DNA of 64,000 nt, taken from the NCBI RefSeq assembly GCF_018531495.1, contig NZ_JAHDTI010000001.1:682001-746000 (forward strand). The letters are read 5' to 3'. Source of the stretch: Nonomuraea sediminis (GTDB taxonomy: Bacteria; Actinomycetota; Actinomycetes; Streptosporangiales; Streptosporangiaceae). The notes under the pieces are model-generated. The model worked only from the letters and a program-made list of their open reading frames with translations. It had not been told where the DNA came from and did not search any database. The position numbers were made by a program, and so were the translations under genes. Of the stretch, positions 54 to 35,139 are shown piece by piece; positions within the stretch are counted from its first letter, which is position 1; every line of letters starts with the position of its first letter.

Positions 54-71
54 GTAAGCGGTACCGCTATC
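54..71 (-). promoter_or_regulatory. 18-bp dyad repeat, copy 1
   Basis: The core GCGGTACCGC is at 58-67 with right flank TATC; the left flank is degenerate. It lies just after the DnaJ-like gene stop (77) and would precede the next leftward gene outside the window. Confidence 0.6.
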
Positions 72-76
72 GGCCG

Positions 77-601
77 TCATCTTGCTCTCGGCGCCCGCCC
101 CGTCGCGTCATAGGTGACCCGCCGGCCGGGATCGGACAGGACGTGGTACGCCTCCCCGATCTCCTGGAACCTCTCCGCCACCGCCGGGTCGGGGTTGACG
201 TCTGGATGCAGCTGCCGGGCCAGCCTCCGGTACGCCCTCTTGATGTCGTCCTGGCTCGCGGTCCTCACGACGCCGAGCAGGTCGTACAGGTGTCCGGCTG
301 GCGGCGTCGCAGGCCTCTGTGGTGGCGGGGGCTGGGTTTGGACGCGTGGCCTGCCAGTGCAGGTGGCGGCGTGCGGCTTCATCCGCTTCGCTGGGGGGAC
401 GAGCGGACGGTCCTTGGTGATGCGGTGGGACCGCAGAACCCCGTGGACGTCCTTCCACACGGCGGTGTTGCCTTCCGGATGCGGGTCCGGGTCCACCGCG
501 AGGTCTGCGCTGTTCTCGGTTCGGGTCCACCGGACATACTTGCCGCACGGCAGCTTGTCCTTCGTCCCCATGCATGGCTTGAGGTCAGCTCGGGAGAACA
601 C
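77..601 (-). CDS. DnaJ-domain protein with N-terminal Cys region
   Basis: The 174-residue product ends in a J-domain (about residues 103-170) with helix II, the HPD tripeptide at 132-134 and the following conserved helix. J-domains stimulate the ATPase of Hsp70 (DnaK). The first 60 residues carry C10, C19 and a DPDPHPEGN stretch that recalls small actinophage proteins of unknown function, so the gene looks like a fusion. The start is GTG at 601, preceded by GGAGGGG. No G/F region or zinc-finger domain of full-length DnaJ is present. A role in recruiting host DnaK during phage replication is plausible but inferred. Confidence 0.75.
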   Translation of the reverse strand: MFSRADLKPCMGTKDKLPCGKYVRWTRTENSADLAVDPDPHPEGNTAVWKDVHGVLRSHRITKDRPLVPPAKRMKPHAATCTGRPRVQTQPPPPQRPATPPAGHLYDLLGVVRTASQDDIKRAYRRLARQLHPDVNPDPAVAERFQEIGEAYHVLSDPGRRVTYDATGRAPRAR

Positions 602-641
602 GCTGCCCCTCCGTGTCCGGATCGGGCAGGGTCGCGGTCAT
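585..641 (-). CDS. Possible 18-residue coupled mini-ORF
   Basis: Its ATG (641-639) overlaps the stop of the upstream gene as ATGA, and its TGA (587-585) lies just inside the DnaJ-like gene, whose GTG start is at 601. The product would be 18 residues beginning MTATLPDPD. The arrangement suits translational coupling rather than a functional peptide. A similar mini-ORF occurs at 1768-1818. Confidence 0.3.
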   Translation of the reverse strand: MTATLPDPDTEGQRVLPS

Positions 642-1768
642 GAAGAGGCTCCGCCGTACCGGGCGAACACGGCGTTGATGGCGGCGAGCTCGGCCCGCGC
701 CTGCTCCCCCTCGACCTCGGCCGTGCCGAGCCTGATCTGCAGGTCGTCGCGCTCGGTGCGCACCTTATCCAGCTCGCGCTTCGTCTCGTCCCGTTCGAGG
801 ATCGCCTGGTCTCGCTCGGCCTCAGTCCGCTGGATGGCCTGCTCGAACCCGATGAGCGCCCGCAGCGCCGGACCAGCGGGCGCTGGCGGCGCGACAGCGG
901 CGGGGGCCGATGTGACCGTCTTGACGGGCGCGGCCGCGACAGTCCGGGGGCCGGGTTTGGGCGTGGTCTTGGTGACGGTCAGGCCGCCGTTGTTCCACTC
1001 GAGCGCGACCCACCACACGGGCGGGGTGGCGCGAGGCCGGTGGCAGCGGGTGTGCTCAGTCCGGTTCAGGTACTGCCGGACTTCCTTCTCATGCAGGGCG
1101 TCCCAGTCGGAGCAGGCGGCCTTGATGATGTCGGCGAGGGCACCGCACCACTGGACGCCGACAACGCCGCCGTTGGTCAGCTGCTTGTCTCCCTGCTCGC
1201 GGGCCGCCTCGCGCAGCAGCCCCCACAGGGCTTCGGCGTCGGCCGCGATGTCGCGGGGCTTGATCCTGGTGACGTTGGCGGACTCGCCGATCGTCGGCAC
1301 AGCGGTGTCTCCTTCGGTGGTGGCGGTGACGGGGGTGGTGTTGGTGAGGTAGGCGATCACCTCGGCCTCGCGGGCGTGCAGCATGTCCGCGTACGGCTTG
1401 GCCTCGACCGGTCCGGGGGTGTGGAGGAGGCCGCCCGACACGTATGGCTTGATGCCGTTCGCGCGGGCCGCGGACAGGAGCGCTTCGACGCTCCACCAGG
1501 TGTCACGGGGCATGGTGTCGGCTTTCTCAGTGGCGAGGTCGGTGGCGGCGACCATGGGTGAAGGCTTCGTAGGGTGGTCGTGCAGCAGGGAGCGAATCTT
1601 CGTCCGGTAGTTGTCCAGGCCCCGGCCCATGGCCTGCAGCGGGATCTCGCCTGTGCGGCCGTTGTCGGGGTTGGTGATCAGCCAGCGGCCGTTAGCGAGC
1701 TGCATCGTGAAGCCCAGACGTTCCGTCTCGGCCTCAACGAGCTTGCGTACATCGGACTTGCTGGTCAT
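638..1768 (-). CDS. Hypothetical phage protein with C-terminal coiled coil
   Basis: The 376-residue product starts at ATG 1768, which overlaps the preceding stop as TAATG; an upstream in-frame extension would run through the neighbouring gene and is rejected. The last 75 residues are rich in E, R, Q and L with heptad spacing and form a probable coiled coil. The middle has an A/P-rich linker. Residues 1-50 contain the segment LANGRWLITNPDNGRTGEI, which could be a small beta-rich domain. I recognise no catalytic motif or family. It lies in the leftward early-gene cassette. Confidence 0.7.
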   Translation of the reverse strand: MTSKSDVRKLVEAETERLGFTMQLANGRWLITNPDNGRTGEIPLQAMGRGLDNYRTKIRSLLHDHPTKPSPMVAATDLATEKADTMPRDTWWSVEALLSAARANGIKPYVSGGLLHTPGPVEAKPYADMLHAREAEVIAYLTNTTPVTATTEGDTAVPTIGESANVTRIKPRDIAADAEALWGLLREAAREQGDKQLTNGGVVGVQWCGALADIIKAACSDWDALHEKEVRQYLNRTEHTRCHRPRATPPVWWVALEWNNGGLTVTKTTPKPGPRTVAAAPVKTVTSAPAAVAPPAPAGPALRALIGFEQAIQRTEAERDQAILERDETKRELDKVRTERDDLQIRLGTAEVEGEQARAELAAINAVFARYGGASS

Positions 1769-1818
1769 TACGGGTTGCCCCGCCAGTCGGTGAGCGTCAT
1801 CGGCTGCTGGTCGGTCAT
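1768..1818 (-). CDS. Possible 16-residue coupled mini-ORF
   Basis: It encodes MTDQQPMTLTDWRGNP. Its ATG overlaps the upstream stop (ATGA at 1818-1815) and its stop overlaps the next start (TAATG at 1770-1766). It bridges two genes that would otherwise be about 45 bp apart, so it may simply carry ribosomes across the gap. Confidence 0.35.
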   Translation of the reverse strand: MTDQQPMTLTDWRGNP

Positions 1819-2330
1819 CGGCTGTCTCCCTTGTGGGTGCAGGTGGCGACGGTCTCGCCGTGCAGGGCGAGGTGTTCCGCGCAGGGCCAGGTGGGGCAGG
1901 CATCGTTCGTGCAGTGGGTCACGGGCCGGGGCGCGCACATCGGACACATACTCAGGACCCCCTTGAGCCACTGCTTGTCGTGAGCGGGGCACGTAATCCA
2001 CGTCTCGGTCGTGGTCGGCTGGTGGCGGGCGTCGATACGGTCGAACGCGGCGCGAAGATCGGTGCCGTCCCGCTTGTCGAGAGGGGCGTCGCTGACGGAC
2101 ATTTCGGTCCTTCCGATGGCGGCCCAGTTCACGGCCTCGTCGATGATCACGAGAGAGGCGCGCTGCCCCTGCCAGGCTCGGCGCGCCTTCATGCGTTCCT
2201 TGATCTGGTCTTGAGTCGGCGGGGTCCAGCCGTGCCAGCCGGCCAAGCGGGTCCACCGCTGGAAGTGGCCGAGCTGCGCGATGCCGCACCAGCGGCACCC
2301 GCTCGGCTGCGCGACCACCCGCTCAGCCAT
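1815..2330 (-). CDS. Hypothetical Cys-rich protein
   Basis: The 171-residue product starts at ATG 2330 (MAERVVAQPSG), overlapping the preceding gene by 8 bp. It has several cysteine pairs: C-x2-C near residue 14, and in the C-terminal third CP/CPMC/C/CP/C/C spacing that suggests one or two zinc ribbons. The centre holds a VIIDEAVNW segment that resembles a Walker B strand, but no P-loop is present. Family unknown; it is part of the leftward early cassette. Confidence 0.6.
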   Translation of the reverse strand: MAERVVAQPSGCRWCGIAQLGHFQRWTRLAGWHGWTPPTQDQIKERMKARRAWQGQRASLVIIDEAVNWAAIGRTEMSVSDAPLDKRDGTDLRAAFDRIDARHQPTTTETWITCPAHDKQWLKGVLSMCPMCAPRPVTHCTNDACPTWPCAEHLALHGETVATCTHKGDSR

Positions 2331-2941: not shown

Positions 2942-3231
2942 GATGCCTGCCTTCCTTCTCGTTTCCTGCGGAGTTGGCGGCGCCGGTAGGAGGTGCGTTC
3001 GTCCTCGTCGAGGCCTCCGGAGACGCCGTGCTGGGTCGCGCTGACCTGCACGTGCCACTGCAGGCACTCGTCCGTGACAGGGCACTGGCGGCAGATCGCC
3101 TTGGCCTTGTTGACCCGGGTCTCCTTCTGTTTGGTCGTCTCCCGGGTTTCTCCTTCACCTGGCCCGTAGAACAGGGCCAGGTCCTTGCCCTTGCAGGCGG
3201 CTCGGCCCTGCCACGCGAGCGGGCCGGCCAT
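2938..3231 (-). CDS. WhiB-family iron-sulfur transcription factor
   Basis: The 97-residue product has the four WhiB cysteines C13, C47, C50 and C56 (C-x33-C-x2-C-x5-C), which bind a [4Fe-4S] cluster. Next come the turn GVSGGLDEDER, with serine replacing the usual W, and a basic tail (RRRQLRRKREGR) for DNA contact. WhiB-like proteins act with the primary sigma factor. Phage versions such as that of TM4 can interfere with host WhiB2 and cell division; whether this one does is inference. ATG 3231 overlaps the upstream stop as ATGA. Confidence 0.9.
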   Translation of the reverse strand: MAGPLAWQGRAACKGKDLALFYGPGEGETRETTKQKETRVNKAKAICRQCPVTDECLQWHVQVSATQHGVSGGLDEDERTSYRRRQLRRKREGRQAS

Positions 3232-3551
3232 CAGCGCCTCCGCTCGGTCAGTCCCAACCTGCGGGCGGCCGCGCTGTACCGTTCGGCTTGGCGGGTCGAC
3301 ACCCGCATGGCGTCGGCGACCTCGTGCAGTGTCTTGCCGTCGTTAAGCAGGTCTGCGCATGTGTGGACCTTCGCGAGGCTCCGCGCCGTGACCGGCATCC
3401 AGGCCGGGCCCTGCTCGGGCCGGATGACCCGGTATCCAGCGTTGCCGAGCGCGTCGAGGATGTCGGTGGCGGTGGGCGTGGCCGCCGACAGGACGTCGGA
3501 GATGACGTCGGTGGCGGCGATAGCGGTTCCGCTTTCAGCATGCGCGTTCAC
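3231..3551 (-). CDS. Small HTH protein
   Basis: GTG 3551 overlaps the upstream stop as GTGA and gives 106 residues. The C-terminal half contains a helix-turn-helix of the sigma/resolvase type (about residues 70-100: LLNDGKTLHEVADAMRVS, then TRQAERYSAAARRLGL), so DNA binding is likely. Codons 5-11 coincide with a copy of the 18-bp dyad repeat, one of two copies inside a gene. Confidence 0.65.
   Translation of the reverse strand: MNAHAESGTAIAATDVISDVLSAATPTATDILDALGNAGYRVIRPEQGPAWMPVTARSLAKVHTCADLLNDGKTLHEVADAMRVSTRQAERYSAAARRLGLTERRR
3519..3536 (-). promoter_or_regulatory. 18-bp dyad repeat, copy 2 (intragenic)
   Basis: The sequence GATAGCGGTTCCGCTTTC lies within the first codons of the small HTH gene (start 3551) and encodes E-S-G-T-A-I. 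It is the only copy with A at position 4. Confidence 0.55.
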
Positions 3552-9756: not shown

Positions 9757-9974
9757 GCACCACCGCCGATGTGCCCGTCGTAGTCGGCTTGGCCGAACCA
9801 GCCGAAGCGGTACTCGTCCTCGATCGTCGGGTCGAGCACCGGACCGCCGAGGTAGCTCGGCTGGCGCCGGGCGGGGAAGGCCTCGTACGGGTGCTGCTGT
9901 TCGTCGGTCTTGAGAGCGCCGATGAAGTCGGTCAGCTCCGTCTCGGTAGGGGGTGTGGTGGTCGGTGGGGTCAC
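9753..9974 (-). CDS. Hypothetical protein, 73 residues
   Basis: The short acidic product has a T/P-rich start and an aromatic C-terminus (YRFGWFGQADYDGHIGGGA). GTG 9974 overlaps the upstream stop. No family recognised. Confidence 0.5.
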   Translation of the reverse strand: MTPPTTTPPTETELTDFIGALKTDEQQHPYEAFPARRQPSYLGGPVLDPTIEDEYRFGWFGQADYDGHIGGGA

Positions 9975-10174
9975 TGGAGGTCCTCTTCGTATTCGGCGGC
10001 CAGGAGCTTTCGGCCGGTCTCCTCGATGCGCTGATAGGCGGCGTCGTAGTCGCCGAGGACGTCGGCGAGCAGAGCGGTCAACGCGCTCTTGGCCGTGTAG
10101 TCCCAGTGCTGTGCGGCTCTTGTGGCGATGAGCTGCACCAGGTCGTCGAGAGTCGGCGTTGTGGTGTTGGGCAT
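9971..10174 (-). CDS. Hypothetical helical protein, 67 residues
   Basis: Predicted all-helical; no motif. ATG 10174 lies four bases beyond the left end of dyad repeat copy 3, so it is the gene most closely apposed to a repeat. Confidence 0.55.
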   Translation of the reverse strand: MPNTTTPTLDDLVQLIATRAAQHWDYTAKSALTALLADVLGDYDAAYQRIEETGRKLLAAEYEEDLQ

Positions 10175-10177: not shown

Positions 10178-10195
10178 GATTGCGGTTCCGCTATT
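10178..10195 (-). promoter_or_regulatory. 18-bp dyad repeat, copy 3
   Basis: Sequence GATTGCGGTTCCGCTATT. It overlaps the stop of the gene at 10191 and ends 3 bp before the next start codon. Confidence 0.6.
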
Positions 10196-10499
10196 GGCGG
10201 TCGGCGATGAACTGGGCGTGTACCCGGATGACCTTGGAGCCTGGGCCGGTGGCGACGGTCCTGGTGGTGGCCTTGTAGGCGCCGCCCTCGACGCGACGGA
10301 AGCCCCTGTAGCCGTTCTTGACGGCGCTGTACAGGCGTGCTGAGGCGCGCCTGCCCTCCAGGATGTCCGGGTATTCGGCGATCACGGCCCACTTGCCCGG
10401 GTGGTCCCGGAGTTCCGCGGCGATGGGGGCGTATTCGTCTTCGCTCTTTACGGGTGTTCTTGGGGCTGGGTCTTCCCAGCGGAGGATGCCTACGGGCAT
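10191..10499 (-). CDS. Hypothetical protein, first gene of the left early operon
   Basis: ATG 10499 (MPVGILRWEDP) gives 102 residues; longer readings cross the control region and are rejected. The product looks like a small RNA- or DNA-binding fold, with a basic C-terminal half (LYSAVKNGYRGFRRVEGGAYKA, then RTVATG). No family recognised. It is the promoter-proximal gene of the leftward operon that runs to position 77. Confidence 0.55.
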   Translation of the reverse strand: MPVGILRWEDPAPRTPVKSEDEYAPIAAELRDHPGKWAVIAEYPDILEGRRASARLYSAVKNGYRGFRRVEGGAYKATTRTVATGPGSKVIRVHAQFIADRQ

Positions 10500-10781: not shown

Positions 10782-11306
10782 GTGGCCGACATCAGCCAGC
10801 CCTCAGCAGCTGTTCAACTCATCAGCGAACGCCGAGAACAGCCAGGACCTCTACGCCGCCGCATCTCCATCCGCGCCGCCGCCAAGCGCGCCACCGAACT
10901 GTCCGGCGAGATGTTCTCCGAACCCAACTGGCGCCGCATCGAATCAGGCGAAAAGAACCCGGAGGAGCGCGAGATCGTCTTCATGGCGGCCGCCATCAAC
11001 GACCTTGCCAACGACGTTGCCATCAGCCCCGACGACCTAGACCAGGCGGGCCGCCCAACGGCGGCCGAGCTCTTTCGCGAATGGATCCGCGAGCGAACCA
11101 AGGCCGACCCAGCGCTGGCTGGCATTGACCCGGATCTCACGCCCGACTCCCTGCAGCAGAGGCTCCAGTCGATGCTCGGCGAGATCCGCGCGCTGGCAGG
11201 CGTCTCCTCAGCAGAGAAGGCACAGATGGAAAAGGTCCTGCTCGAGCATCTCGACTCCACCCTCAAGGCCTACAGCGCCCAAATGCGCATCTTGCGGCCG
11301 AGGTAG
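10782..11306 (+). CDS. HTH regulator, candidate element repressor
   Basis: GTG 10782 after GAAGGGA gives 174 residues. The N-terminal half shows an XRE-like arrangement (RISIRAAAKRATELSGEMFSEPNWRRIESGEKNP) in which helix 2, the turn and the S-x3-I-x-S-G pattern of the recognition region are visible. The C-terminal half is helical and probably dimerises. It is the only rightward gene at the early control region, faces the leftward operon and adjoins the GACGC operator-like sites, so it is the best repressor candidate. That role is inference. Confidence 0.65.
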   Translation: MADISQPSAAVQLISERREQPGPLRRRISIRAAAKRATELSGEMFSEPNWRRIESGEKNPEEREIVFMAAAINDLANDVAISPDDLDQAGRPTAAELFREWIRERTKADPALAGIDPDLTPDSLQQRLQSMLGEIRALAGVSSAEKAQMEKVLLEHLDSTLKAYSAQMRILRPR

Positions 11307-14123: not shown

Positions 14124-15208
14124 GCGTTGTGGACTGGTTAGCTCTGATCCTTCTGTGGGGAGCGTCGATCTCACGCATCCGGCCAGCTCTGCACAGCCAT
14201 GAGCAACGTATGCTCTGGGGCGCTTTCACGGCCCTGGCATTGTCCCGCGTGTTCTCGGCGGCGCCTTTGGTGGCGTGGATGGACGCCGCCACCTCGACGG
14301 AGCTGGCAACGCTGCTGCGGCACCTGACCGGTCTGGCGTCGGCGTCCTGCCTGCTGGCCTACGTGGAGGCGATCACCCGGCACGGCCGACCGTCTCGAGC
14401 CCGCTGGATCTGGCCAACTGCTGCGCTGGTGGTCACGGTCCTCACCGCCATGTTCCTGCTGCGGGGCGGCCGCATCTACTGGATGGACGGCGCGTACGCA
14501 CCCGGCGAAACCGCGATCCAGGGGCGCAGCTACCTCACCGTGTTCGACGGCTGGTTGATGACCTGCTTGGCCGCGGCCGGAGTGCTTTTCGCGGGCTACG
14601 CGAGGATGGCGCCGCCGCTGCTGCGAGTTGGGTTGCTGCTGTCCACGGTCGGCATGGCGGCCGGCGTGCTCAACCGGGCGCACGTCATGGTCGTCAACGT
14701 GGCCACCCTGATCAACCCGGCAACGAGCTGGCGGGAAATCCCGATCCTGGGCAAGACGACGTTCCTGATCTGCATCGTCGGCATCACGGCAGGTACGTCC
14801 ATTCCGGCCTGGCGAGCGGGCATGGCGCGACTGCGGGACATGGCCGCGCTGCGCGAGCTGCGGCCGCTGTGGGAAGGGCTCACCGGCCAGTACCCGGATG
14901 TGGCGCTCCCCATGGAGGCCACGCTGAAGGAGCGGCTGGTGCGGCGGGTGTTGGAAATTCGCGATTGCATGCTCAACCTGACCTCGGTCGTGGCACCACC
15001 CGAAAGTGATGACCCCGGCGAGGTGGCCCAGTGGGTCGCCGACGCGCTGGGAGTTGCCCGCGCTGGGCGCGGGTCTGGAGTACCGTCCGGGACGATCCCG
15101 GGCCCTGATTTTGCTGGCGACATGGAGAGGGAGATTCAGTGGTTGCGTCAGGTAGCGACACGGTTCAGGCAACTGAAGGGCGAAAGAAGCGTGTCGCTCG
15201 GCTCTTGA
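14120..15208 (+). CDS. Multi-pass membrane protein, MAB_1171c-like
   Basis: Of 362 residues, the first 230 form about seven hydrophobic helices. The C-terminal 120 residues are a soluble helical domain (RLRDMAALRELRPLWEGLTGQYPD and following). This architecture fits the actinobacterial family annotated as MAB_1171c-like putative transporter, often found behind XRE-ImmA pairs; its function is not established. GTG 14120 overlaps the ImmA stop (GTGA). The C-terminus overlaps the next gene by 70 bp. Confidence 0.65.
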   Translation: MSVVDWLALILLWGASISRIRPALHSHEQRMLWGAFTALALSRVFSAAPLVAWMDAATSTELATLLRHLTGLASASCLLAYVEAITRHGRPSRARWIWPTAALVVTVLTAMFLLRGGRIYWMDGAYAPGETAIQGRSYLTVFDGWLMTCLAAAGVLFAGYARMAPPLLRVGLLLSTVGMAAGVLNRAHVMVVNVATLINPATSWREIPILGKTTFLICIVGITAGTSIPAWRAGMARLRDMAALRELRPLWEGLTGQYPDVALPMEATLKERLVRRVLEIRDCMLNLTSVVAPPESDDPGEVAQWVADALGVARAGRGSGVPSGTIPGPDFAGDMEREIQWLRQVATRFRQLKGERSVSLGS

Positions 15209-16485: not shown

Positions 16486-16971
16486 TCACGGAGTATTGGG
16501 CCATTTATCGCGAGCCGCGACAAACGTCCCGATCGCGGGCACGGTGTACACCCAGCCCTGCTCGCGCAACAGAGCGACGGCTGCGCGGACCGTCTTTTTC
16601 GCCACGCCGTGCTGCTCCATCATCTCCGTCTCGGATGGCAGCACCTCGTCCGTCTCGTAGTTGCCTTTCTTGATGCCCTCGGCGATGGAGGCCGCGACCT
16701 GCTCGAACGGCCATGCCTTACGGATCTTTGGGGCGTCCTCGGGTCCGACGTAGGAGCCTTCGGGGCGGACGGTGTAGATGACGCTTTCCTCACGCAGGGC
16801 AGCTAGCGCCCTGCGCACCGTCAGCCGTGACGCGCCATGGGTCTCGCCGAGCTCGGCCTCCGTTGGCAGCGCCTGGCCAGGCTTGAGCCGACCGGAGGCG
16901 ATGTCGTCCTTGATGGCCTTGATGATCGTCTGGTAGATCGGCACCGGGCCGCGGGGGCCTCGTTTGGTCAT
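16486..16971 (-). CDS. Regulator with two tandem GntR winged helices
   Basis: ATG 16971 (MTKRGPRGPVPIYQ) gives 161 residues made of two GntR-type winged-helix domains in a row: about 8-75 (PGQALPTEAELGETHGASRLTVRRAL) and about 80-155 (DEVLPSETEMMEQHGVAKKTVRAAV). There is no room for an effector domain. A monomer could thus bind a repeated site by itself. GTATACG-type sequence just upstream (about 17000) is a possible operator. Confidence 0.8.
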   Translation of the reverse strand: MTKRGPRGPVPIYQTIIKAIKDDIASGRLKPGQALPTEAELGETHGASRLTVRRALAALREESVIYTVRPEGSYVGPEDAPKIRKAWPFEQVAASIAEGIKKGNYETDEVLPSETEMMEQHGVAKKTVRAAVALLREQGWVYTVPAIGTFVAARDKWPNTP

Positions 16972-18275: not shown

Positions 18276-18293
18276 GATTGCGTTTCCGCTATC
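18276..18293 (-). promoter_or_regulatory. 18-bp dyad repeat, copy 4
   Basis: Sequence GATTGCGTTTCCGCTATC. It overlaps the stop of the ParB-like gene and lies about 57 bp before the DnaQ-like start. Confidence 0.65.
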
Positions 18294-18663
18294 AGCGGTA
18301 GTAGCCGAGGCCCTTGTCGCCGCCGTGTATGCGGACCTGGTACTCCTCTTCGGGCGTGAGGAGGTGGGCGGGCAGGGTTTCGACGCCGGTCTTGCGGGCC
18401 TTCCAGATGCGGTGCCAGCCGTCGATGATGAGGTTCCCGGCGTCGGGGATGGGGGCGACAATCAGGGGCTTGGAGAGGTCCACGGTGGCGGCGTAGTCCT
18501 CGTTGATGTGGACCAGGAACAGCGGTCCGGTTTCGTCGGCGCGGACGTAGTCGGGATCGCGGCCCTGGACGATGTCCTCGGCGAGGTTGATGTTCCAGGC
18601 ATAGGTCCCGAAGTGGAACACCTCGCGCATGCGCTGGCTCTGCTCGACGGGCTGGGTAGTCAA
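18292..18663 (-). CDS. ParB/sulfiredoxin-like nuclease-domain protein
   Basis: The 123-residue product contains PLIVAPIPDAGNLIIDGWHRIWKARKTG, which resembles the ParB N-terminal core (strand, then DG-x-HR helix). ParB-like domains in phages may be CTP-binding clamps, nucleases or kinases; no HTH follows, so this is not a partition ParB. The GTG start is at 18663. Confidence 0.6.
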   Translation of the reverse strand: MTTQPVEQSQRMREVFHFGTYAWNINLAEDIVQGRDPDYVRADETGPLFLVHINEDYAATVDLSKPLIVAPIPDAGNLIIDGWHRIWKARKTGVETLPAHLLTPEEEYQVRIHGGDKGLGYYR

Positions 18664-18683: not shown

Positions 18684-18995
18684 CTAGCGAGTAGCGGAGG
18701 GCGTGGGCAAGAGCACCCAGCCTTCGGCGTCGAGTTCCTGGTAGAGGGCCGCCAGGAACTGGGACAGCGGTCCATCGATCCAGGGGATGTAACAGGTGTC
18801 GCCGATCTCCAGCGAGTCAACGTCCTGGTAGTCGTCGCCGGGGGCGAAAAAGTCGGCCGGCGCTTCATCCCCGTAGAAGTGGGTCATCCAGACGGGGCCG
18901 GGCTCGTCGGGCTGCACGTCGGGAGTGATCTCGTAGTGTTTGATCTCGATCTGCCCGTTGTCAGGGTTGGTGCGGGTGTAGAGCTGGATCTCCAT
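18684..18995 (-). CDS. Hypothetical acidic protein, 103 residues
   Basis: Starts at ATG 18995 with a ribosome site (GGAAGGGAAAG). Strongly acidic, no motif recognised. It is the first gene after the AT-rich promoter region at 19062-19260. Confidence 0.55.
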   Translation of the reverse strand: MEIQLYTRTNPDNGQIEIKHYEITPDVQPDEPGPVWMTHFYGDEAPADFFAPGDDYQDVDSLEIGDTCYIPWIDGPLSQFLAALYQELDAEGWVLLPTPSATR

Positions 18996-19043: not shown

Positions 19044-19061
19044 GACGGCGGTACCGCTATC
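19044..19061 (-). promoter_or_regulatory. 18-bp dyad repeat, copy 5
   Basis: The core GCGGTACCGC with right flank TATC lies 49 bp before the 18995 start and at the edge of a divergent promoter region. Confidence 0.6.
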
Positions 19062-19260: not shown

Positions 19261-19716
19261 ATGACACGTAGGTCACCAGAGCAGCCGACAGCGGAACCGC
19301 AATCGGCCCGCACAGGCCCCCGCCGGACCCGCAAGCCCCAGTGGACAAGCCTCCATCCCACCATTGCTCATCTGTACACCGACATCGACCAACGCCTCAC
19401 CGACGGCCTCGAAACCACTGGCATGGGGCTGCAAGAGACGTTCGAGGCGGCCATCAACACCTACTGCGACGCGCTTGAGCCGCCCATCCCGGCCGAGATG
19501 CCGGAAGACGCCGATCTCAAGATGCCGCGCGATCCCAACGAGCCGCTGCCCGGCACACCGATCGATCGGCCAACCGCGCCGCCGGCCGTCGTACGGCTTC
19601 AGCGCAACACCCGAGCCCGGCTCGTGGCCGCGTGCAAACAGAAGCAGATGGGCGGCAAGGCCGTCATCAACGACGCCATCGAGGCGTACCTCGACGAGCT
19701 GGACCTGGAGCAGTAG
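19261..19716 (+). CDS. Ribbon-helix-helix DNA-binding protein
   Basis: ATG 19261 (MTRRSPEQP) follows CAGGAAG; an upstream in-frame start is possible. The 151-residue product has a disordered start and a C-terminal ribbon-helix-helix (PPAVVRLQRNTRARLVAACKQ, then GGKAVINDAIEAYLDEL). An earlier segment (about 42-80, LTDGLETTGMGLQETFEAAINTYCDAL) has the same pattern, so this may be a double RHH protein. CopG/Arc-type RHH proteins repress promoters or act in partition. Confidence 0.65.
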   Translation: MTRRSPEQPTAEPQSARTGPRRTRKPQWTSLHPTIAHLYTDIDQRLTDGLETTGMGLQETFEAAINTYCDALEPPIPAEMPEDADLKMPRDPNEPLPGTPIDRPTAPPAVVRLQRNTRARLVAACKQKQMGGKAVINDAIEAYLDELDLEQ

Positions 19717-24946: not shown

Positions 24947-24964
24947 GATTGCGGAACCGCTATC
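24947..24964 (-). promoter_or_regulatory. 18-bp dyad repeat, copy 6
   Basis: Sequence GATTGCGGAACCGCTATC. It overlaps the methyltransferase stop codon and lies 53 bp before the PP-loop 1 start. Confidence 0.65.
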
Positions 24965-26882
24965 AGGCGGCAAGGTCGTAGTCGAACCTGGACAGCTCGA
25001 TGTTGAGAATCGCCTCGATGATGGCGCAGGTCAGGATCTCGGCCATGGGCGGCGGGACCGCGTTGCCGATGAGCTTGACCTTGTCGCGCGCCGTGTCGGC
25101 GACGAACTCGTAGTTGTCGGGGAACGACTGCGCCCGCCGGAGCTCATGGATCCGCAGCATCCGGAACAGGATGGACGACACATCGATCTGGCCATCTGAG
25201 GTGAGCAGAGCCCACCGGTCGCGGGTCGGCAGGGTCCCCACCGGCTCGTTCACATCCTGCGTACGACCGTTGCCGTAGTACGCCATGAGCAGCGTCTCGG
25301 GCACGGGCAGGCCGGGAGGGGCTGTGACCAGCGACTGGTGCCCGGTCGTGGTAACCGTGCGCATGTGCTCGCTCGTCGGGGTGACGTGCTCGCGCCCGTC
25401 GCCCTTGCTGCCGTTGTTGCGCATGAGCAGCGACGGCGGCGGCTCCCAGCCGGGAGGGACTCCGAGCCCGTGATGGAAGCCGCCGGCCGTGACCGCGTGT
25501 GCGGGGTCCTCGAACGCGGGCCTCGACTTGAACTCGTCACCCCCGCCTCGGAACGGGAACATCAGCGGCAGCATCCCGTCCTGGAAGGCTGGGTCGCTGG
25601 CCAGCGCGTGGTTGGAGCCGTCCGAGACGAGGGTCGCCAGCGGGTCCGTGGTCGGGTTGGTGTTCCGAGCGCGGTCCGACCGCATCAGGGACAGGAACGC
25701 CGGGAACGCCCCGGGCGGGGCGTCGGGGTCGATCGCGATGGCGTCTTCCAGGCGGGTTGTGCTGGTCCGCTTCGGCAGGCTGGTCGGCCGCGCCTTCTTG
25801 CCGTCGCGGCCTTCGCACGGTACGACGAGCGCGTTCGCCTCGCGCGTGGTGAGTGCGGGGATGGGCTCGTCCACTCCCCGCGGCCCGTCGTTCCAGGTGC
25901 CGCCCGCGGGGACGGTGAAGGGCTTGATCCAGTGCTCCTGGACTCCGGCGCGGACGCGCGCCATCGTCTTCGGTGCCAAGCCCTCCGGTTTCTTCTTCGT
26001 CTTCTTCCTGCTGCCGATCGGCGTCCCGAGGTCGGTCCAGTCGATCGCGTACGCGGCGGGAAGCACCGGCGGTTCGATGATCTGTCCCTGGCACGCCAGT
26101 TCGGGGCAGACGTACACGTACTGGCCGTTCTTGATGCCGTAGACGCCCATGTCCACGCCGGGGCGCTTCCACGCCTTGACGGCCTGCACCCATCCGCCGT
26201 GGCGGTGGCAGAAGGCGTGCGGGTTGAACCACTTGTCGTAGTTCGGCGTGCGGCCCACGGACTCGTGGATGCCGGACACGAGCATCCGGTCGCGGGACTG
26301 CGGGGTGGGCAGCGTGGTGCGTCCCTGCACGTGCGCGGCGTTCACGGCGTGGATCTGGATGATGTAGCCGAGCTTCCGCAGCTCGCGGATCCACCGGTCC
26401 CAGTGCGCCCACAGCCGGGCCTGCACGACGTTCTCGACACCGAAGCCCAGCACCGGCTTGCCGTATTTCTCCTGGCAGTGGCGCAGGTAGGTGACTACCT
26501 CCTCCATCAGGGCGCGGCTTCTGATGCGGGTCTTCTGGTGCTCGGTCAGGTTGTCCAGGTCGTCGGCCCACAGGGCCATCTGGTTTTCCTTGTCGAAGTA
26601 CCGCGTCTCACCCGATGCGGTGCTGAACGCGGGGCAAGCCGGGCTCGCCCAGAAGAACGAGGCGTACGGGAACTTCTCGATAGCGTCGGCCGCCTGGACG
26701 TCGCCGAGCCAGAAGTCCACGTCGGGGTGGTTCTCGACGTACGTCCACTTCGCGGGCTTCGCGTGGTTGGCTGCGAACTTTAGCTTCGTGCCGGGGACGG
26801 CAGCGATTCCGGTTCCGGAGCCGCCACCGCCTGCGAACATCTCGACAACGTCGAGGTCGTCGGGGAACAGCCGGTTCAGCAC
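24963..26882 (-). CDS. DNA (cytosine-5) methyltransferase
   Basis: The 639-residue product has all main C5-MTase motifs in order: I (VEMFAGGGGSGTG, 13-25), IV with catalytic C83 (ASPACPAFS), VI (GFGVENV, about 155), VIII (QSRDRML), a long target-recognition region, IX (RRAQSFPDNY) and X (LIGNAVPPPMAEIL). It would methylate cytosine at C5 in a short sequence that cannot be predicted. No restriction endonuclease is adjacent, so it is probably a solitary, protective enzyme. The start is GTG 26882, overlapping the upstream gene by 7 bp. Confidence 0.9.
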   Translation of the reverse strand: MLNRLFPDDLDVVEMFAGGGGSGTGIAAVPGTKLKFAANHAKPAKWTYVENHPDVDFWLGDVQAADAIEKFPYASFFWASPACPAFSTASGETRYFDKENQMALWADDLDNLTEHQKTRIRSRALMEEVVTYLRHCQEKYGKPVLGFGVENVVQARLWAHWDRWIRELRKLGYIIQIHAVNAAHVQGRTTLPTPQSRDRMLVSGIHESVGRTPNYDKWFNPHAFCHRHGGWVQAVKAWKRPGVDMGVYGIKNGQYVYVCPELACQGQIIEPPVLPAAYAIDWTDLGTPIGSRKKTKKKPEGLAPKTMARVRAGVQEHWIKPFTVPAGGTWNDGPRGVDEPIPALTTREANALVVPCEGRDGKKARPTSLPKRTSTTRLEDAIAIDPDAPPGAFPAFLSLMRSDRARNTNPTTDPLATLVSDGSNHALASDPAFQDGMLPLMFPFRGGGDEFKSRPAFEDPAHAVTAGGFHHGLGVPPGWEPPPSLLMRNNGSKGDGREHVTPTSEHMRTVTTTGHQSLVTAPPGLPVPETLLMAYYGNGRTQDVNEPVGTLPTRDRWALLTSDGQIDVSSILFRMLRIHELRRAQSFPDNYEFVADTARDKVKLIGNAVPPPMAEILTCAIIEAILNIELSRFDYDLAA

Positions 26883-28400: not shown

Positions 28401-28418
28401 GGTGGCGGTTCCGCTATC
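28401..28418 (-). promoter_or_regulatory. 18-bp dyad repeat, copy 7
   Basis: The core GCGGTTCCGC with right flank TATC overlaps the preceding gene's stop and lies 46 bp before the PP-loop 2 start. Confidence 0.65.
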
Positions 28419-30024
28419 AGGCGGCGATGACCACGACGACCGTGTTGATGCCGGTCGCCGGGGCGAACGAGCCGGCGGGAAGCGGCTCGAACTCGCCACC
28501 GCGCTCCTCGACCAGGACGCGGAACTTCTCGGCTGTCCTGGACTGGTGGAAGATGATCCCGGCGCCCATGACGGCGACGAGCCGGCCGCCGGGCTTGAGG
28601 AACCGCAGGGCGTGGGTGACGTGCGCGATGTCCTTGCCGCCAGAGAACGGCGGGTTCATCACGATCCGGTCGCATGTCGGCTCGTCCGGCTCCTCCAAGT
28701 CGAGGAAGTCCCGGATGTGGATGGAGTTCGCCCCGGGGACGCGCTCGGCCAGAACCTTCGCCAAGCCCTGATCAATCTCGACGCAGTCCACGACCGCGCC
28801 ACGCTCGACGGCTGCCGCCGCGATGTTGCCGGTTCCCGCCGATGGTTCGAGGACAGTCATGCCGGGCTGGATGTCGGCCAGCTCCATGAGCTTGTCCACC
28901 ACGGCGGGCGGGGACACGAACGCTTCCCGCCCGGCGCCCACCTGCATGTTGCTGACGGTTTGCGAGGCCGCCTGCAGCTGCTCGGTGTCGACCTTCGGCA
29001 CCTCGACCTTCGGCCGGTTCGGCGCCTGCTTGACGCGTCGCTTCGGCGCGATGACCGCGGGCCCGTCCTCGCCGTGCGGGCACTCGATGGCGAGGATGTC
29101 GGTGAAGGGCACCTTGTCGGGCCAGGAGTAGCCGGAATCGGCGCTCACGGTCTTTCGGTTGACCTTCAGCACGACGCTCCTGCGCCAGTAGACGACCGTG
29201 TCGCCCACGTGCACGTTGTGCGGCCCCCACTTGACGTACTCGCCCGCCTCCACCGCGGCGGCGAGCTGCGCCCGGTCGTATTCGAGCTGGTTCTCCAGCT
29301 GCGCCTTGCGGGCGAGCTGCATCTCCCGGTAGTCGCCCTGGGCGGGCTCGTGGCTCTCGATGTAGCACGGGTTGCCAGCGTGGTCGAGGTGCCTGCGCTC
29401 GTAGCCGTCCAGCGACTTCTGGATCTTGCGCAGCTCGGCCTCAGCCGTCTTGATCCGGCGCGCGGTCACGGCCGGAGTCGCGGAGCGCCGCAGCTGCCTG
29501 CCGACCGCGTTCGCGCGCTCGGCCGCGCTCTGCGCCGCGTCGTTCTCGGCGATGCTGGTCCGCATCGCCTGGTCCATCCGCTTCCGGTCGCGTCGCGCGC
29601 CCCGCTCGGAGTGGTGACCGACCAGGATGGGCTGGCCAGCCGCGAACCGCTCGCTGATCTGGTGAGCCCGCTCGTGCGCGGCCGACGCCGCACCGGCGTG
29701 ACGGTCGGCCTTCCGCTCCAGCGCGTCGCGGCGGTCTTCGAGCCGGTCGGCCTTATCTTCCAGGACTTGGGCGCGGTCGCGGAAGTTGTCGTCGATCTCG
29801 ACCTCGACCTCGAACCCCGCCTTGCGCAGGGCCTCGGCCGCGGCGTTGATCGCCCACCGGTCGGCGACCCGGTCACGCGAGTTGCGGAGCCCGATCATGC
29901 GGAGGGAGGGGAAGAACTTGAAGCCGCCGTTCTCGTACTTGCGGATGATGTCGTACACGCCGTCGCCCTTGCGGGTGCCGTAGACGAGCGTGCCGTCCTC
30001 GTGGGTGTGCTTGATCCTGATCAA
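28417..30024 (-). CDS. DUF3560 plus N6-adenine-type methyltransferase fusion
   Basis: The 535-residue product starts at TTG 30024. Residues 1 to about 130 match DUF3560 (HTHEDGTLVYGTRKGDGVYDI, then FFPSLRMIGLRNSRDR). A basic coiled coil follows (130-290). The C-terminus is a class I SAM methyltransferase: MTVLEPSAGTGNIAAAAVERGA (motif I), VDCVEID, and catalytic NPPFSGG (motif IV), typical of adenine-N6 enzymes. DUF3560 is frequent on plasmids and phages beside anti-restriction genes. It likely modifies the element's DNA. Confidence 0.85.
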   Translation of the reverse strand: MIRIKHTHEDGTLVYGTRKGDGVYDIIRKYENGGFKFFPSLRMIGLRNSRDRVADRWAINAAAEALRKAGFEVEVEIDDNFRDRAQVLEDKADRLEDRRDALERKADRHAGAASAAHERAHQISERFAAGQPILVGHHSERGARRDRKRMDQAMRTSIAENDAAQSAAERANAVGRQLRRSATPAVTARRIKTAEAELRKIQKSLDGYERRHLDHAGNPCYIESHEPAQGDYREMQLARKAQLENQLEYDRAQLAAAVEAGEYVKWGPHNVHVGDTVVYWRRSVVLKVNRKTVSADSGYSWPDKVPFTDILAIECPHGEDGPAVIAPKRRVKQAPNRPKVEVPKVDTEQLQAASQTVSNMQVGAGREAFVSPPAVVDKLMELADIQPGMTVLEPSAGTGNIAAAAVERGAVVDCVEIDQGLAKVLAERVPGANSIHIRDFLDLEEPDEPTCDRIVMNPPFSGGKDIAHVTHALRFLKPGGRLVAVMGAGIIFHQSRTAEKFRVLVEERGGEFEPLPAGSFAPATGINTVVVVIAA

Positions 30025-30081
30025 AATTCCTCGCTCAAGGGAGAGCGCAGGGCAGCCACCCGCCGCCCTGCGCGCGGGTAG

Positions 30082-30735
30082 CTACTGCTGGGGGCCGTGC
30101 TCCTCGTCGGCGTCCTTGAGCTGGGCCTGCATCAGCTCCAGGACGAGCTCGCGGGGAGGCTTGCCGCCGGGCCGGGGCGCGAACACCGCGCAGTCCGGCG
30201 GGCACAGCGTGGTGCGGTCCTCGGGGCCGGTCGGGGTGGTGCCGCAGCGCGGGCACTTCACGATGGGCCGGGTCTGGGTCACGTCCCACGTGCCGCGCTT
30301 CACGTAGTAGCGAGGCCCGCGCTTGGACGACTGCCAGCCCTCCTCGGCCAGCTTCTTCTCCTCGGCCTTCTGCTCCTCGGTCTGCTTGCGGCCGATGTGA
30401 CGGAACGTGCCGAGTGCCTTCTCCCCCTCGGCGACGCAGCGACCCTGCTCCAGCCAGTAGTCGAAGCCGCCGCAGTGGACGAGCGGCCGCCGCTGCGCGG
30501 CCAGCAGCGCGGCGTTTTGCAGCGAATAGCCGCCGTCGTCGCTGGCCGGGTCGAACTTCCACCCGATGCTCGCGGCGATCGAGCGGAACTCCTCCAGCTC
30601 AGCCGGGTCGGACAGGCACAGCACGGCGTAGTTGTGCAGCGCGTCGTTCGCGGCGGCCCTGCTCGCCTGCGACTGGGCCTTCATCTCGTCGGTGACGGGA
30701 CGGCGCTTGCGGCGCTTCTCCGTGGCGGTCGCCAT
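30082..30735 (-). CDS. ArdC-like ssDNA-binding anti-restriction protein
   Basis: ATG 30735 gives 217 residues. Residues 40-125 follow the ArdC N-terminal domain: YSLQNAALLAAQRRPLVHCGG, FDYWLEQGRCVAEGEKALGTF. The metallopeptidase half of full ArdC is missing; instead a short zinc-ribbon-like CPRCGTTPTG, then C-P-D-C, is present. ArdC-type proteins bind single-stranded DNA and protect incoming plasmids from host restriction. It sits in the DNA-modification block. Confidence 0.7.
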   Translation of the reverse strand: MATATEKRRKRRPVTDEMKAQSQASRAAANDALHNYAVLCLSDPAELEEFRSIAASIGWKFDPASDDGGYSLQNAALLAAQRRPLVHCGGFDYWLEQGRCVAEGEKALGTFRHIGRKQTEEQKAEEKKLAEEGWQSSKRGPRYYVKRGTWDVTQTRPIVKCPRCGTTPTGPEDRTTLCPPDCAVFAPRPGGKPPRELVLELMQAQLKDADEEHGPQQ

Positions 30736-30762
30736 CGTGGCGTTTCTCCTTGTCGTGATGTT

Positions 30763-30780
30763 GATTGCGGTATTGCTATC
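30763..30780 (-). promoter_or_regulatory. 18-bp dyad repeat, copy 8
   Basis: Sequence GATTGCGGTATTGCTATC, with two departures in the right half. It lies 27 bp before the ArdC-like start; no hairpin follows. Confidence 0.55.
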
Positions 30781-30785
30781 AGCGT

Positions 30786-31154
30786 CTAGGGATAGTTGAG
30801 CTCGTAGCCGTCCGGCAGCGACACGCGCCGGGTGCACTGCTGGCACTCGAAGCCGTCGCCCTCGAAGTAGCCGTCGCCAAGGCTCACGCTGATGACGCCC
30901 GGCTCGGTAATGGTCATCTCGTTGGACCGCGTGGCCACGTCCAGCTCAACGATGTCGTCGGCGGCGCCGCAGTCGCCGAAGGGGCAGACGAGTTTGCCGT
31001 CCTCGACGAGCGCGGTCGGCGCGTCGTTCAGGTCGGGGATCACGGCCTCGCAGCACGCGGAGACGATCGTGCCGTCCGAGTCGCCGCGGGTGATGATGCG
31101 CGAGCGCTCACCGCACGTCGGGCACATCCGAGTCTCGGGAAGAAAGGTGATCAC
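30786..31154 (-). CDS. Zinc-ribbon protein, 122 residues
   Basis: Contains CPTCGER at residues 11-17 paired with ACCEA, and CPFGDCG with CQQCTR near the C-terminus, suggesting two zinc sites. GTG 31154 overlaps the upstream stop. No family recognised. Confidence 0.55.
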   Translation of the reverse strand: MITFLPETRMCPTCGERSRIITRGDSDGTIVSACCEAVIPDLNDAPTALVEDGKLVCPFGDCGAADDIVELDVATRSNEMTITEPGVISVSLGDGYFEGDGFECQQCTRRVSLPDGYELNYP

Positions 31155-32732: not shown

Positions 32733-32743
32733 ATGGTTCCCTT

Positions 32744-33022
32744 TCAGTTGTCCCAGCCCTGCTCGGGCAGGCAGTTGAGGAGGCCGATGATGTGGGTGGC
32801 GCCGCTGCATTTCCGGGTGCTGTGGTTCAGCTGCCAGGTGAGGGTGATCCGCAGGGCGCGGCCCTTGTCGGCGGAGACGTCGAGAGTGCCGAAGTACAGG
32901 CCACGACTGAGCCGAAGCTGGTAGATGCGGCGGTATGGCTCCTCGGGGATGTTCACGGTGAACCCGTCATCGCGGAGCCGCCGGATGATTCCGGACGCAC
33001 TGCGGTTGGGCTGCATGGGCAT
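32744..33022 (-). CDS. Hypothetical protein, 92 residues
   Basis: ATG 33022 (MPMQPNRSASGIIRRLRDDG). Mixed alpha/beta, one C-x20-C pair, no known family. 11 bp upstream of the PP2C gene start. Confidence 0.5.
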   Translation of the reverse strand: MPMQPNRSASGIIRRLRDDGFTVNIPEEPYRRIYQLRLSRGLYFGTLDVSADKGRALRITLTWQLNHSTRKCSGATHIIGLLNCLPEQGWDN

Positions 33023-33096
33023 GTGCTGGTCCTTTCTTGCGAGCAGCGCAGGGCCCGCCCCGGGGGCGGCAGCGAGGCGGGGCCGGGCGTGATCGG

Positions 33097-33264
33097 CTAG
33101 TTCCAGTTGATGGAGCAGGAGACGTGGTGCTCCTGTGGGGGCGCGTCCCATCGGGCCGGGCAGTCGCCGCACTGGTCATGGATCTCGAAAGGGAAGACGT
33201 CGGTGATGTTCACCGGCTCTTGCTCGGTGTCGTCGTCGTGGCTGTCGGCGGTGGCGCGGTTCAC
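33097..33264 (-). CDS. Small protein, 55 residues
   Basis: GTG 33264 with GGGGAG 9 bases upstream. The product is acidic and ends with a CGDCPARW knuckle, a histidine pair and a further C (EHHVSCSINWN), so a single zinc knuckle is possible. Confidence 0.45.
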   Translation of the reverse strand: MNRATADSHDDDTEQEPVNITDVFPFEIHDQCGDCPARWDAPPQEHHVSCSINWN

Positions 33265-33412
33265 GAATGCTCCCCTTCTGAGCGGTCTGTCTTGGGTGGG
33301 TGCGTTACGCTGGGACGCACTGGGTCTTCGTTGTGGCGACGAGGGTCCGGGGCTTTCTGTGGTGTTGGGATGGCCGGGCCTGTGGCGGGCCCGGCCATCG
33401 CCGTTCCCGGGG

Positions 33413-33979
33413 CTACTCGCGCGGCAGGACGCGCAGGGCGCAGTGGTTGACCGCCTCGACCCAAACGCCCACAGGCAGCCGAACCGGCTCGTACTCCACA
33501 GGCGAGTAGTCCGACCGGCCGCCGTGGCGGACCAAGAACGTCCAGTCGTCCACGCCGTGCTCCCAGACGATGACGCGGCCGCCCCCTTCGTCCCAATCGG
33601 CGTCCATGACCTGCGGCCAGTAATTGCGGTCACCGCTGAAGTGCTCGCCGATCGCGTCGGCGATCTGCTGCGCCAGCTCGTCGCTGATCTCGGTAGGAGT
33701 ACCGTTCGTCGAGTTCAGCACGTGGATTGCGGTATCGCTTTCACCAACACGGGTGACGAGCATCGCGTCGAACAGCGTCGAGCCTTCCTGCATCGCGTGC
33801 TGGATGGCCTCGCTGGCGTGCGCGGGGCCCCAGTCTGCCGACTCCATGATCGCGATGAGCGCCCGCTGGGCGTGCCCGTACGGGCCAGGGTCGCAGGCAA
33901 GCTTCTGGTCATCGGCCTGGTTGAGGCGGCGCAGGACGAGCAGCAGGTCTTCGGCGATGCCGCGGGTCGTGGTGTCCAT
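33413..33979 (-). CDS. Hypothetical protein, 188 residues
   Basis: ATG 33979. The N-terminal 85 residues share the segment LFDAMLVT with the LLDAMLVA segment of the gene upstream (33999-35054). The C-terminal half is distinct, with D/E-rich and W-rich portions. Dyad copy 9 lies inside, near codon 80, and a GTG follows it, so two ancestral genes may have been joined. No function assigned. Confidence 0.55.
   Translation of the reverse strand: MDTTTRGIAEDLLLVLRRLNQADDQKLACDPGPYGHAQRALIAIMESADWGPAHASEAIQHAMQEGSTLFDAMLVTRVGESDTAIHVLNSTNGTPTEISDELAQQIADAIGEHFSGDRNYWPQVMDADWDEGGGRVIVWEHGVDDWTFLVRHGGRSDYSPVEYEPVRLPVGVWVEAVNHCALRVLPRE
33725..33742 (-). promoter_or_regulatory. 18-bp dyad repeat, copy 9 (intragenic)
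   Basis: Sequence GATTGCGGTATCGCTTTC, reading E-S-D-T-A-I in the gene, similar to the peptide at copy 2. Confidence 0.5.
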
Positions 33980-33998
33980 CGTGTGCTCCGTTGCGCTC

Positions 33999-35054
33999 TC
34001 AGTGGCCGGTGTTGGCGCAGACGGGCTTGCCGTCCGTCGTGCGGGAGACGGCAGGGCTGTCACAGGTGCGACAGGTGGCGCGTTCGCGGATCACGTCGAG
34101 CGCGGTGTCGATCGCCGCGCACGCGGCCATGAATAGGCGCCGCTTGCAGTCGAGGCCGGCGTTGCCCCGGACGATCTGCTCGAACGCGAGCCGGTCGTCC
34201 ACGGCGGCGCGGGAGGCGCTGATCAGCAGCAGTTCGACGCCGACGAGGTCGAGGTCGTACTTGGCGGGGTTGGTGGCCTGGGCGGCGGTGAACGTTGCGA
34301 CGAGCATCGCGTCGAGCAGCGAGCCTCGCTCGTCGAGCTTCTTGCGGCCGGCGAGGTAGTACGGCATCGGGCGGCCGTCGTGGTATTCGATGCCCGGCGG
34401 CGTCGTCTCCGGGTGGGCTGGGGCAACCTCGTGCACAGCGTTGTCGGGGTAGCCGTCGCTCTCGCCGATCAGCTTCCAGGCGTGAACGTTGAGCAGGTCG
34501 CCCAGCGCGGGGGCGTCGTCGTCGAGGGGGACGCCGGAGTCGAGGATGGCGACGACCTTGGGCAGGGGGAACAGCATTGTCTCGCCGTCCTCGGTGTACT
34601 CCTCGGCCTCGGCGATGGCTACCAGGTGGTGTGCCGGGAGGGAAGCCCCGTCGAGGCCGAGCTCGAAGGTGTGGGGTTCGTCGATCGCGACGGCCAGGTA
34701 GCGAGTGGTCGCGACTGTCGCGAGCGGCCGGGCGGGCGTCTCGGCTGCGTCGTCTCGCTCTCCGAACTCGAAGACCACGCTCCGGATGACGACCATTTGG
34801 CCTTCGGGGGTGAGGTCGTCGTACGTGGCGTCGTCCGGGTACGGCGTGGCGCCGGTGTCCTTCTCGTAGGCGAAGTGAAAGGCCGCGGCCTGGGTGACGG
34901 CGGCCAGGTTCTCCTCGAACTCCTCCGGGGCGGAGGGGTTGGTCAGCATCCGGGCGATCGTCGCGAGCATCTGACTGGTGGTTCCGCCCTCGTTGCGGAC
35001 TTCCTTCACAGCGGCCAGCAGTTCGGTGCGGGTCCGAACGGTGATCGTGTCCAT
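33999..35054 (-). CDS. Hypothetical protein, 351 residues
   Basis: ATG 35054 (MDTITVRTRTELL). The extension back to 35144 runs through the hairpin and dyad copy 10 and is rejected. Acidic overall, with a C-terminal CRTCDSPAV, then C-A-N zinc-knuckle-like end. No family recognised. First gene of the leftward operon from the 35-kb control region. Confidence 0.55.
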   Translation of the reverse strand: MDTITVRTRTELLAAVKEVRNEGGTTSQMLATIARMLTNPSAPEEFEENLAAVTQAAAFHFAYEKDTGATPYPDDATYDDLTPEGQMVVIRSVVFEFGERDDAAETPARPLATVATTRYLAVAIDEPHTFELGLDGASLPAHHLVAIAEAEEYTEDGETMLFPLPKVVAILDSGVPLDDDAPALGDLLNVHAWKLIGESDGYPDNAVHEVAPAHPETTPPGIEYHDGRPMPYYLAGRKKLDERGSLLDAMLVATFTAAQATNPAKYDLDLVGVELLLISASRAAVDDRLAFEQIVRGNAGLDCKRRLFMAACAAIDTALDVIRERATCRTCDSPAVSRTTDGKPVCANTGH

Positions 35055-35078
35055 GCTGTTCTCCTCGTGACATGCCGC

Positions 35079-35107
35079 GGCCCCGCGACCGTGGCGGTCG
35101 CGGGGCC
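35079..35107 (-). terminator. Strong GC-rich hairpin after dyad repeat
   Basis: A 13-bp perfect stem (35079-35091 with 35095-35107) and 3-base loop lie between dyad copy 10 and the 35054 start. It lies in the leader of the operon, so it could attenuate transcription rather than end an upstream gene. Confidence 0.65.
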
Positions 35108-35121
35108 AGAGCCGGTTAACT

Positions 35122-35139
35122 GATTGCGGCACCGCTATC
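35122..35139 (-). promoter_or_regulatory. 18-bp dyad repeat, copy 10
   Basis: Sequence GATTGCGGCACCGCTATC, in the leader region 67 bp before the 35054 start. Confidence 0.65.

What the first reader, a model, noticed from the sequence alone, without database searches (positions are those of the whole stretch)
54..35139. Ten copies of an 18-bp dyad form a one-orientation regulatory network across the element
The consensus GATWGCGGNNCCGCWATC occurs at 54, 3519, 10178, 18276, 19044, 24947, 28401, 30763, 33725 and 35122. The palindrome keeps a fixed T/T mismatch, so all copies point the same way relative to leftward transcription. Eight copies lie between genes, usually overlapping or just after the upstream stop and 3-70 bp before a start. 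This recalls the stoperators of cluster A mycobacteriophages, but the site is palindromic and longer. No described actinophage repeat known to me has this sequence.
Basis: partly seen in the sequence, partly recalled or inferred. Interest (0 to 1): 0.75.

Follow-up and report, generated by a model that had tools for sequence, protein, structure and literature searches.

The report
Phage-wide operator network with likely regulator
An integrated virus of a soil bacterium carries about seventeen copies of one mirror-image DNA site, mostly between its genes; related viruses carry the same or a different matching set, and the evidence points to one small virus protein as the likely binder, probably to keep the virus quiet.

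Summary
The motif is real and specific. All ten listed sites are present, plus an eleventh, reversed one at 19287. At up to 2 mismatches, 17 of 21 genome-wide places lie in one ~95.7-kb prophage and 4 elsewhere in 12.1 Mb. Homologous elements, some in other genera, carry it at the same gene junctions. It is a 24-bp DNA palindrome; 11 of 12 symmetric pairs show no RNA-type covariation.

The "fixed T/T mismatch, one orientation" fails as stated: T/T in 6 of 11 window sites; polarity reversed in 4 of 15 informative classes.

The likely binder is gp129 (19261-19716 +), a predicted tandem ribbon-helix-helix protein. All 12 closest gp129 homologues have a site within ~1.5 kb (10 of those genomes were already known from the motif). 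Among 11 more distant elements, 3 clearly carry GTTGGCGGNNCCGCCAAC instead; GATW and GTTG types exclude each other.

Best reading: a dispersed phage-repressor operator network, stoperator-like in placement, of the kind of the phiC31 repeats but with unrelated operator and regulator. Binding and silencing are inferred.

The parts
54..71 (-). site, 5 bp after the stop of gene 77-601 and 63 bp before the next leftward start
   Evidence: class I94, 7 elements
3519..3536 (-). site in the 5' end of the called gene 3231-3551 (start uncertain; between called genes in G049, G039, G024, G080)
   Evidence: class H101, 6 elements
10178..10195 (-). site overlapping the stop of gene 10191-10499, 3 bp before the start of 9971-10174
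   Evidence: class G113, 7 elements
18276..18293 (-). site whose upstream half contains the stop codon of gene 18292-18663; a GC hairpin follows
   Evidence: class F126, 7 elements
19044..19061 (-). site in the divergent interval between 18684-18995 (-) and 19261-19716 (+), about 200 bp upstream of the proposed regulator gene
   Evidence: (class E129)
24947..24964 (-). site containing the stop codon of gene 24963-26882; a hairpin follows (z only -0.8)
28401..28418 (-). site containing the stop codon of gene 28417-30024; a hairpin follows
30763..30780 (-). site between genes 30786-31154 and 30082-30735
   Evidence: class C143, 6 elements
33725..33742 (-). site inside gene 33413-33979, at the same distance from the called start in 6 elements
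   Evidence: class B150
35122..35139 (-). site in the long noncoding interval upstream of gene 33999-35054; a GC hairpin (z -4.4) follows
   Evidence: class A151, 7 elements
19261..19716 (+). gp129, proposed cognate regulator: predicted tandem ribbon-helix-helix protein, 151 aa (start uncertain)
10782..11306 (+). gene 115, weak helix-turn-helix match; rival binder, no site near its own start in this element
16486..16944 (-). gene 124, two GntR-type domains; rival binder, no site near its own start, no homologue found in the 80 kb of G004
37460..38710 (+). tyrosine integrase at the right end of the prophage; the 20-bp end repeat follows it (window 38719-38738)

Best explanation
The sites are operators of a phage-encoded regulator, most likely gp129. 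gp129 is predicted to carry two ribbon-helix-helix units in one chain; two molecules would bind one 24-bp palindrome, one per half. It would control itself through a site about 200 bp upstream and a second site inside the 5' end of its own gene. The other ~15 sites sit mostly between the stop codon of one gene and the ribosome-binding site of the next in long same-strand operons. There a bound protein would silence the prophage by blocking start or passage of RNA polymerase in many operons at once, and its specificity would set the immunity group. Shown: the sites, their element specificity, conservation, DNA-type pattern, and different palindromes in elements with diverged gp129. Predicted: the gp129 fold. 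Inferred: binding, silencing, the roadblock step and immunity.
Confidence: 0.57

Rival explanations
1. The same operator network, but bound by the XRE-like gp115 (10782) or the double-GntR gp124 (16486).
For: Both are DNA-binding-type proteins found in the main GATW elements. In G004 and G041 C14 a palindrome lies 275 and 376 bp from the gp115 homologue.
Against: In this element no site near the starts of 10782 or 16486 (best scores 5.7 and -6.5 in the stretches scanned). gp124 was not found in the 80 kb of G004, which has 12 sites. The conserved self-site is at gp129.
Confidence: 0.22
2. The network is a lytic-phase timing system: the regulator activates or staggers early and late operons instead of silencing them.
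For: Sites occur in early and late regions alike; class K89 abuts a promoter-like sequence (by eye).
Against: At many junctions the site is 3-35 bp from the next start codon, leaving little room for a promoter; gp129 is transcribed against most other genes of the element.
Confidence: 0.2
3. The palindrome works as an RNA hairpin (processing, termination or antitermination) in the leftward transcripts.
For: Location between stop and start; GC hairpins follow several sites.
Against: No covariation at 11 of 12 pairs; the exception (1/18, p 0.0004) goes with element-wide G/A preference by my reading. A/A and T/T at positions 4/15 are common (33 and 10 of 99 distinct sites). A 2-nt centre leaves no loop.
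Confidence: 0.06
4. A DNA-maintenance site set (partition, transfer or packaging) dispersed over the element.
For: The predicted gp129 fold is closest to chains of the F relaxosome, a transfer complex. By eye the element has a ParB-like-domain gene; a gene that I read as FtsK/Tra-like had no Pfam match.
Against: Sites follow gene junctions and the gp129 gene rather than one cluster; no ParA recognised by eye in the proteins printed.
Confidence: 0.06

Closest known systems
phiC31 inverted repeats (CIRs), bound by the c repressor (name and repressor link recalled)
   Same: Palindrome of similar length dispersed over an actinophage genome; 15 places around CCTACTCACGTGAGTAGG in AJ006589, some with a changed end base, several directly between a stop and the next start.
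   Different: Unrelated sequence: best score of our PWM in phiC31 is 7.3. No gp129 profile match in phiC31 at E 0.01.
Stoperators of cluster A mycobacteriophages (L5, TipsytheTRex; PMC9283540, passages read)
   Same: More than twenty repressor sites in promoters and short intergenic spaces.
   Different: 13-bp asymmetric site bound by a monomer with two DNA-binding domains; reversing the site abolishes repression. Here a palindrome, with only partial polarity, and an RHH-type candidate.
17-bp dyad repeats of cluster O mycobacteriophages (PMC4351075, passages read)
   Same: TGTTCGGNNNCCGAACA, 34 copies in Corndog; 14 between genes and 10 near gene 5' ends.
   Different: Function unknown there; no stable lysogens recovered, no integrase. 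Here a prophage with a candidate binder and several matched palindrome types.
F plasmid TraY (PMC12117103, passages read) and archaeal virus AvtR (4hv0)
   Different: TraY acts at oriT in conjugation; 12-15% identity over the aligned part.

Membership tests
Dispersed phage-repressor operator network | Many near-identical sites confined to the phage genome | tested here: met
   17 of 21 genome-wide places in the element
Dispersed phage-repressor operator network | Sites mostly intergenic | tested here: met
   11 of 17 in G000, with 10.8% of the stretch noncoding
Dispersed phage-repressor operator network | Sites bound by the phage's own repressor, giving immunity | not testable with these tools
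   needs binding and lysogen tests
Cluster A stoperators | Asymmetric 13-bp site | tested here: not met
   24-bp palindrome
Cluster A stoperators | Orientation tied to transcription | tested here: inconclusive
   11 of 15 informative classes agree, 4 reversed
Cluster A stoperators | Repressor with HTH plus stoperator domain | tested here: inconclusive
   the proposed binder gp129 is predicted RHH, but the binder is not proven
phiC31 CIR system | Same inverted-repeat sequence | tested here: not met
   best PWM score 7.3 in phiC31
Ribbon-helix-helix proteins (gp129) | Beta strand plus two helices, twice in one chain | tested here: met
   on a predicted model only, pLDDT 83.7; RHH_1 cut-off passed by homologue L333, just missed by L328, no match for gp129 itself
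RNA hairpin element | Compensatory base changes | tested here: not met
   11 of 12 pairs show none in 99 distinct sites; pair 1/18 p 0.0004

The most novel reading that the evidence does not exclude
A family of large Streptosporangiaceae prophages is governed by a tandem ribbon-helix-helix (TraY-fold) master repressor working through dispersed palindromic stoperators. The repressor and its whole set of 6-17 sites change specificity together, creating immunity groups (GATW, GTTG, GACA/GCCA) that let different elements live in one host, as in G041.
Probability: 0.38. Interest if true: 0.78.

Novelty: new variant of a known kind. Interest (0 to 1): 0.62.

Why it matters
To my knowledge (recalled) genome-wide repressor site networks are known from few phages, and how a repressor and a dozen or more scattered sites change specificity together is not settled; PMC9283540 (passages read) takes up the evolution of new immune specificities. 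Here at least two clear site types of one regulator family can be read side by side, with the two predicted beta strands of the regulator as the obvious place to look for the determinants. If gp129 is the binder, this adds another DNA-binding fold to the stoperator-like systems and gives small proteins for direct tests.

Tried and rejected
RNA hairpin: rejected by lack of covariation at 11 of 12 pairs. Chance: rejected. Host-chromosome motif: rejected. XRE gene 119 as the master regulator: not found in the G049, G039 and G080 stretches that carry the motif. gp129 had no match in the phages or plasmids collections; viral contigs gave 3 loci, of which L389 has 4 PWM hits, L390 1 and L391 none. 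First AF2 run with 7 sequences gave pLDDT 43 and was not used. Two Streptomyces phage-plasmids with a 58% and 55% identical terminase have no gp129 match, and their best palindrome clusters (10 and 13) are low-complexity and close to the Markov control (8 and 9). De novo palindrome search in G047, G030, G020, G017 and G008C541 gave no convincing repeated family (G017 has 3 copies of a GTTCGCGG type). Iterons suspected upstream of 35122: 10 matches in the window against 7.7 expected. Five of 112 PWM hits fitted no class and were left out of class counts: G041 C38:2034 and 4117, G041 C104:18654, G053a, G005. Gene calls come from my own simple caller, so starts are uncertain. Eight paper searches: no listing I saw describes this motif or gp129; passages of five papers were read.

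Full report
Observation. The pattern GATWGCGGNNCCGCWATC gives 11 matches at up to 3 mismatches in the window, against a mean of 1.18 in shuffles and 0 of 100 shuffles with 11. Ten are the listed sites; 19287 is new. The window is C11:682001-746000 of a 12.09-Mb genome. At up to 2 mismatches there are 21 places, 17 within C11:627480-717139 and 4 elsewhere; the reversed pattern gives 12.

The element. A 20-bp direct repeat at C11:625023 and 720719, the right copy just after a tyrosine integrase (window 37460-38710), bounds about 95.7 kb. It carries a terminase, an exonuclease and, by eye, portal, capsid, tape measure and lysin genes, mostly leftward. I did not test for an empty site. One PWM hit (622731, score 16.8) lies outside this boundary.

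Relatives. Of 197 genomes searched, 86 have a match at up to 1 mismatch, most with only a few; G000, G041, G049, G039, G026, G024, G053 and G080 stand out in number or clustering. G080 shares the 27,402-bp contig length of Thermocatellispora tengchongensis, family Streptosporangiaceae; that the host is Nonomuraea-like is my inference from genome size and kinship. A PWM trained on the 11 window sites found 112 hits above 17, those 11 included, in 17 sequence sets; 1.6 Mb of Markov sequence gave none above 16. 107 of the 112 fall into 18 positional classes. I treated 14 as intergenic and 4 (E129, B150, N57, P22) as coding, but the G000 sites of J92 and H101 also lie inside called genes. Distances to flanking genes are often identical to the base.

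Anatomy. The full motif is GCTRAYWGCGGTACCGCWRTYAGC. In 26 of 99 class members the stop codon of the upstream gene is the T-R-A of the upstream half; in 51 of 99 the stop lies within 6 bp, against 1.5% expected at random. Of nine G000 sites folded with their downstream 60 nt, z is -4.4, -3.0, -2.9 and -2.7 for A151, 28401, F126 and J92 (57563), and between -1.0 and +1.8 for the other five, 24947 among them, which has a plain hairpin all the same. Over 99 distinct sites, 11 of 12 symmetric pairs show no excess of complementary changes; pair 1/18 does (p 0.0004), which I read as element-wide G/A preference. This is the pattern of two protein half-sites, not of an RNA stem.

Polarity. At position 4 the upstream half prefers A in 11 classes, the reverse holds in I94, K89, O47 and P22, and 3 classes are neutral (sign-flip p 0.016). 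Overall half-site score favours the upstream half in 10 of 18. A strict orientation rule as in cluster A is not supported.

The binder. Candidates were gp115, gp119, gp124 and gp129. gp119 was not found in the G049, G039 and G080 stretches. In this element gp129 is the only one with sites at its own gene. A profile search of 341 family genomes found gp129 relatives in 35. Of the 30 loci returned, the 12 with E <= 6.2e-42 all carry the motif within about 1.5 kb; of the other 18, 1 does. Ten of those 12 genomes were already known from the motif; G305 and G302 were not. Among 11 more distant elements, G004, G040 and G007 clearly carry GTTGGCGGNNCCGCCAAC (13, 16 and 10 at up to 3 mismatches, shuffles 0-1, 0-2 and 0-5); G041 C14 and G036 show a GACA/GCCA type with modest excess (9 against 0-2; 10 against 2-5); G053c has 4 copies of another palindrome at up to 4 mismatches against 0-1; five gave nothing convincing. 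The cross table at up to 2 mismatches shows GATW 7-17 and GTTG 0 in eight elements, GTTG 6-16 and GATW 0 in three; G041 C14 and G036 are mixed among the related types. An operator-like palindrome at +20..+125 of gp129 occurs in 10 of 12 close and 11 of 14 distant homologues, against 95 of 944 gene starts; upstream in 7 of 12 and 6 of 14, against 210 of 944. The homologues are not independent (G019, G012 and G038 are near-identical there), the test is lax, and the internal stretch codes for a partly conserved A-E/K-P. Against gp129: in G004 and G041 C14 a palindrome lies 275 and 376 bp from the gp115 homologue. In the 12 distant regions gp115 was found in 5, gp124 in 8, gp119 in 1; some regions are cut by contig ends.

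Known systems. A de novo scan of phiC31 recovered 15 places around CCTACTCACGTGAGTAGG, which I take from memory to be its repressor repeats; this served as a positive control and shows that the kind exists in actinophages. Cluster O repeats and cluster A stoperators were compared from passages of PMC4351075 and PMC9283540. The case is a new variant: new operator, different candidate regulator fold, several palindrome types in one regulator family.

Weight (my estimates). Real element-specific regulatory network: about 0.95. gp129 as binder: about 0.7, lowered from 0.75 on rechecking because of the gp115-near sites and because 10 of 12 close loci were found by the motif; best explanation and novel case lowered slightly for the same reason. 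Silencing by blocked transcription: about 0.5.

Noticed in passing
C11:633364-645317 (outside the window; L007 and L008): Rightward cargo block with thymidylate-synthase-like, carbamoyltransferase, glycosyltransferase-like, APH-family phosphotransferase and epimerase genes; possibly DNA-base or surface modification.
   Followed up: partly
leftwards of the site at C11:677115 (L009, about 14970-15114): A very conserved stretch follows this site in 7 elements: by eye promoter-like TTGCG..TGTAACAC, a short leader and a hairpin with a T run in G000. It may encode a small RNA or leader.
   Followed up: no
window 35140-35465: Conserved ~300-bp noncoding interval with CGCGTCAGAT/ATCTGACGCG arms and, by eye, a GTGTTA..TAACAC dyad, near a gene with a weak replication-initiation match; possible origin.
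   Followed up: partly
C11:623595, 624903 and 720897: AAGATGGTGTAGATCT(TG) occurs three times around the two ends of the prophage, perhaps a trace of an earlier integration.
   Followed up: no
G041 C38/C104/C363 and G041 C14: One genome holds at least two related elements with different palindromes, as expected for different immunity groups.
   Followed up: partly
L332 and L333 (G036, G047): gp129 homologues that by eye hold four RHH-like repeats instead of two.
   Followed up: no
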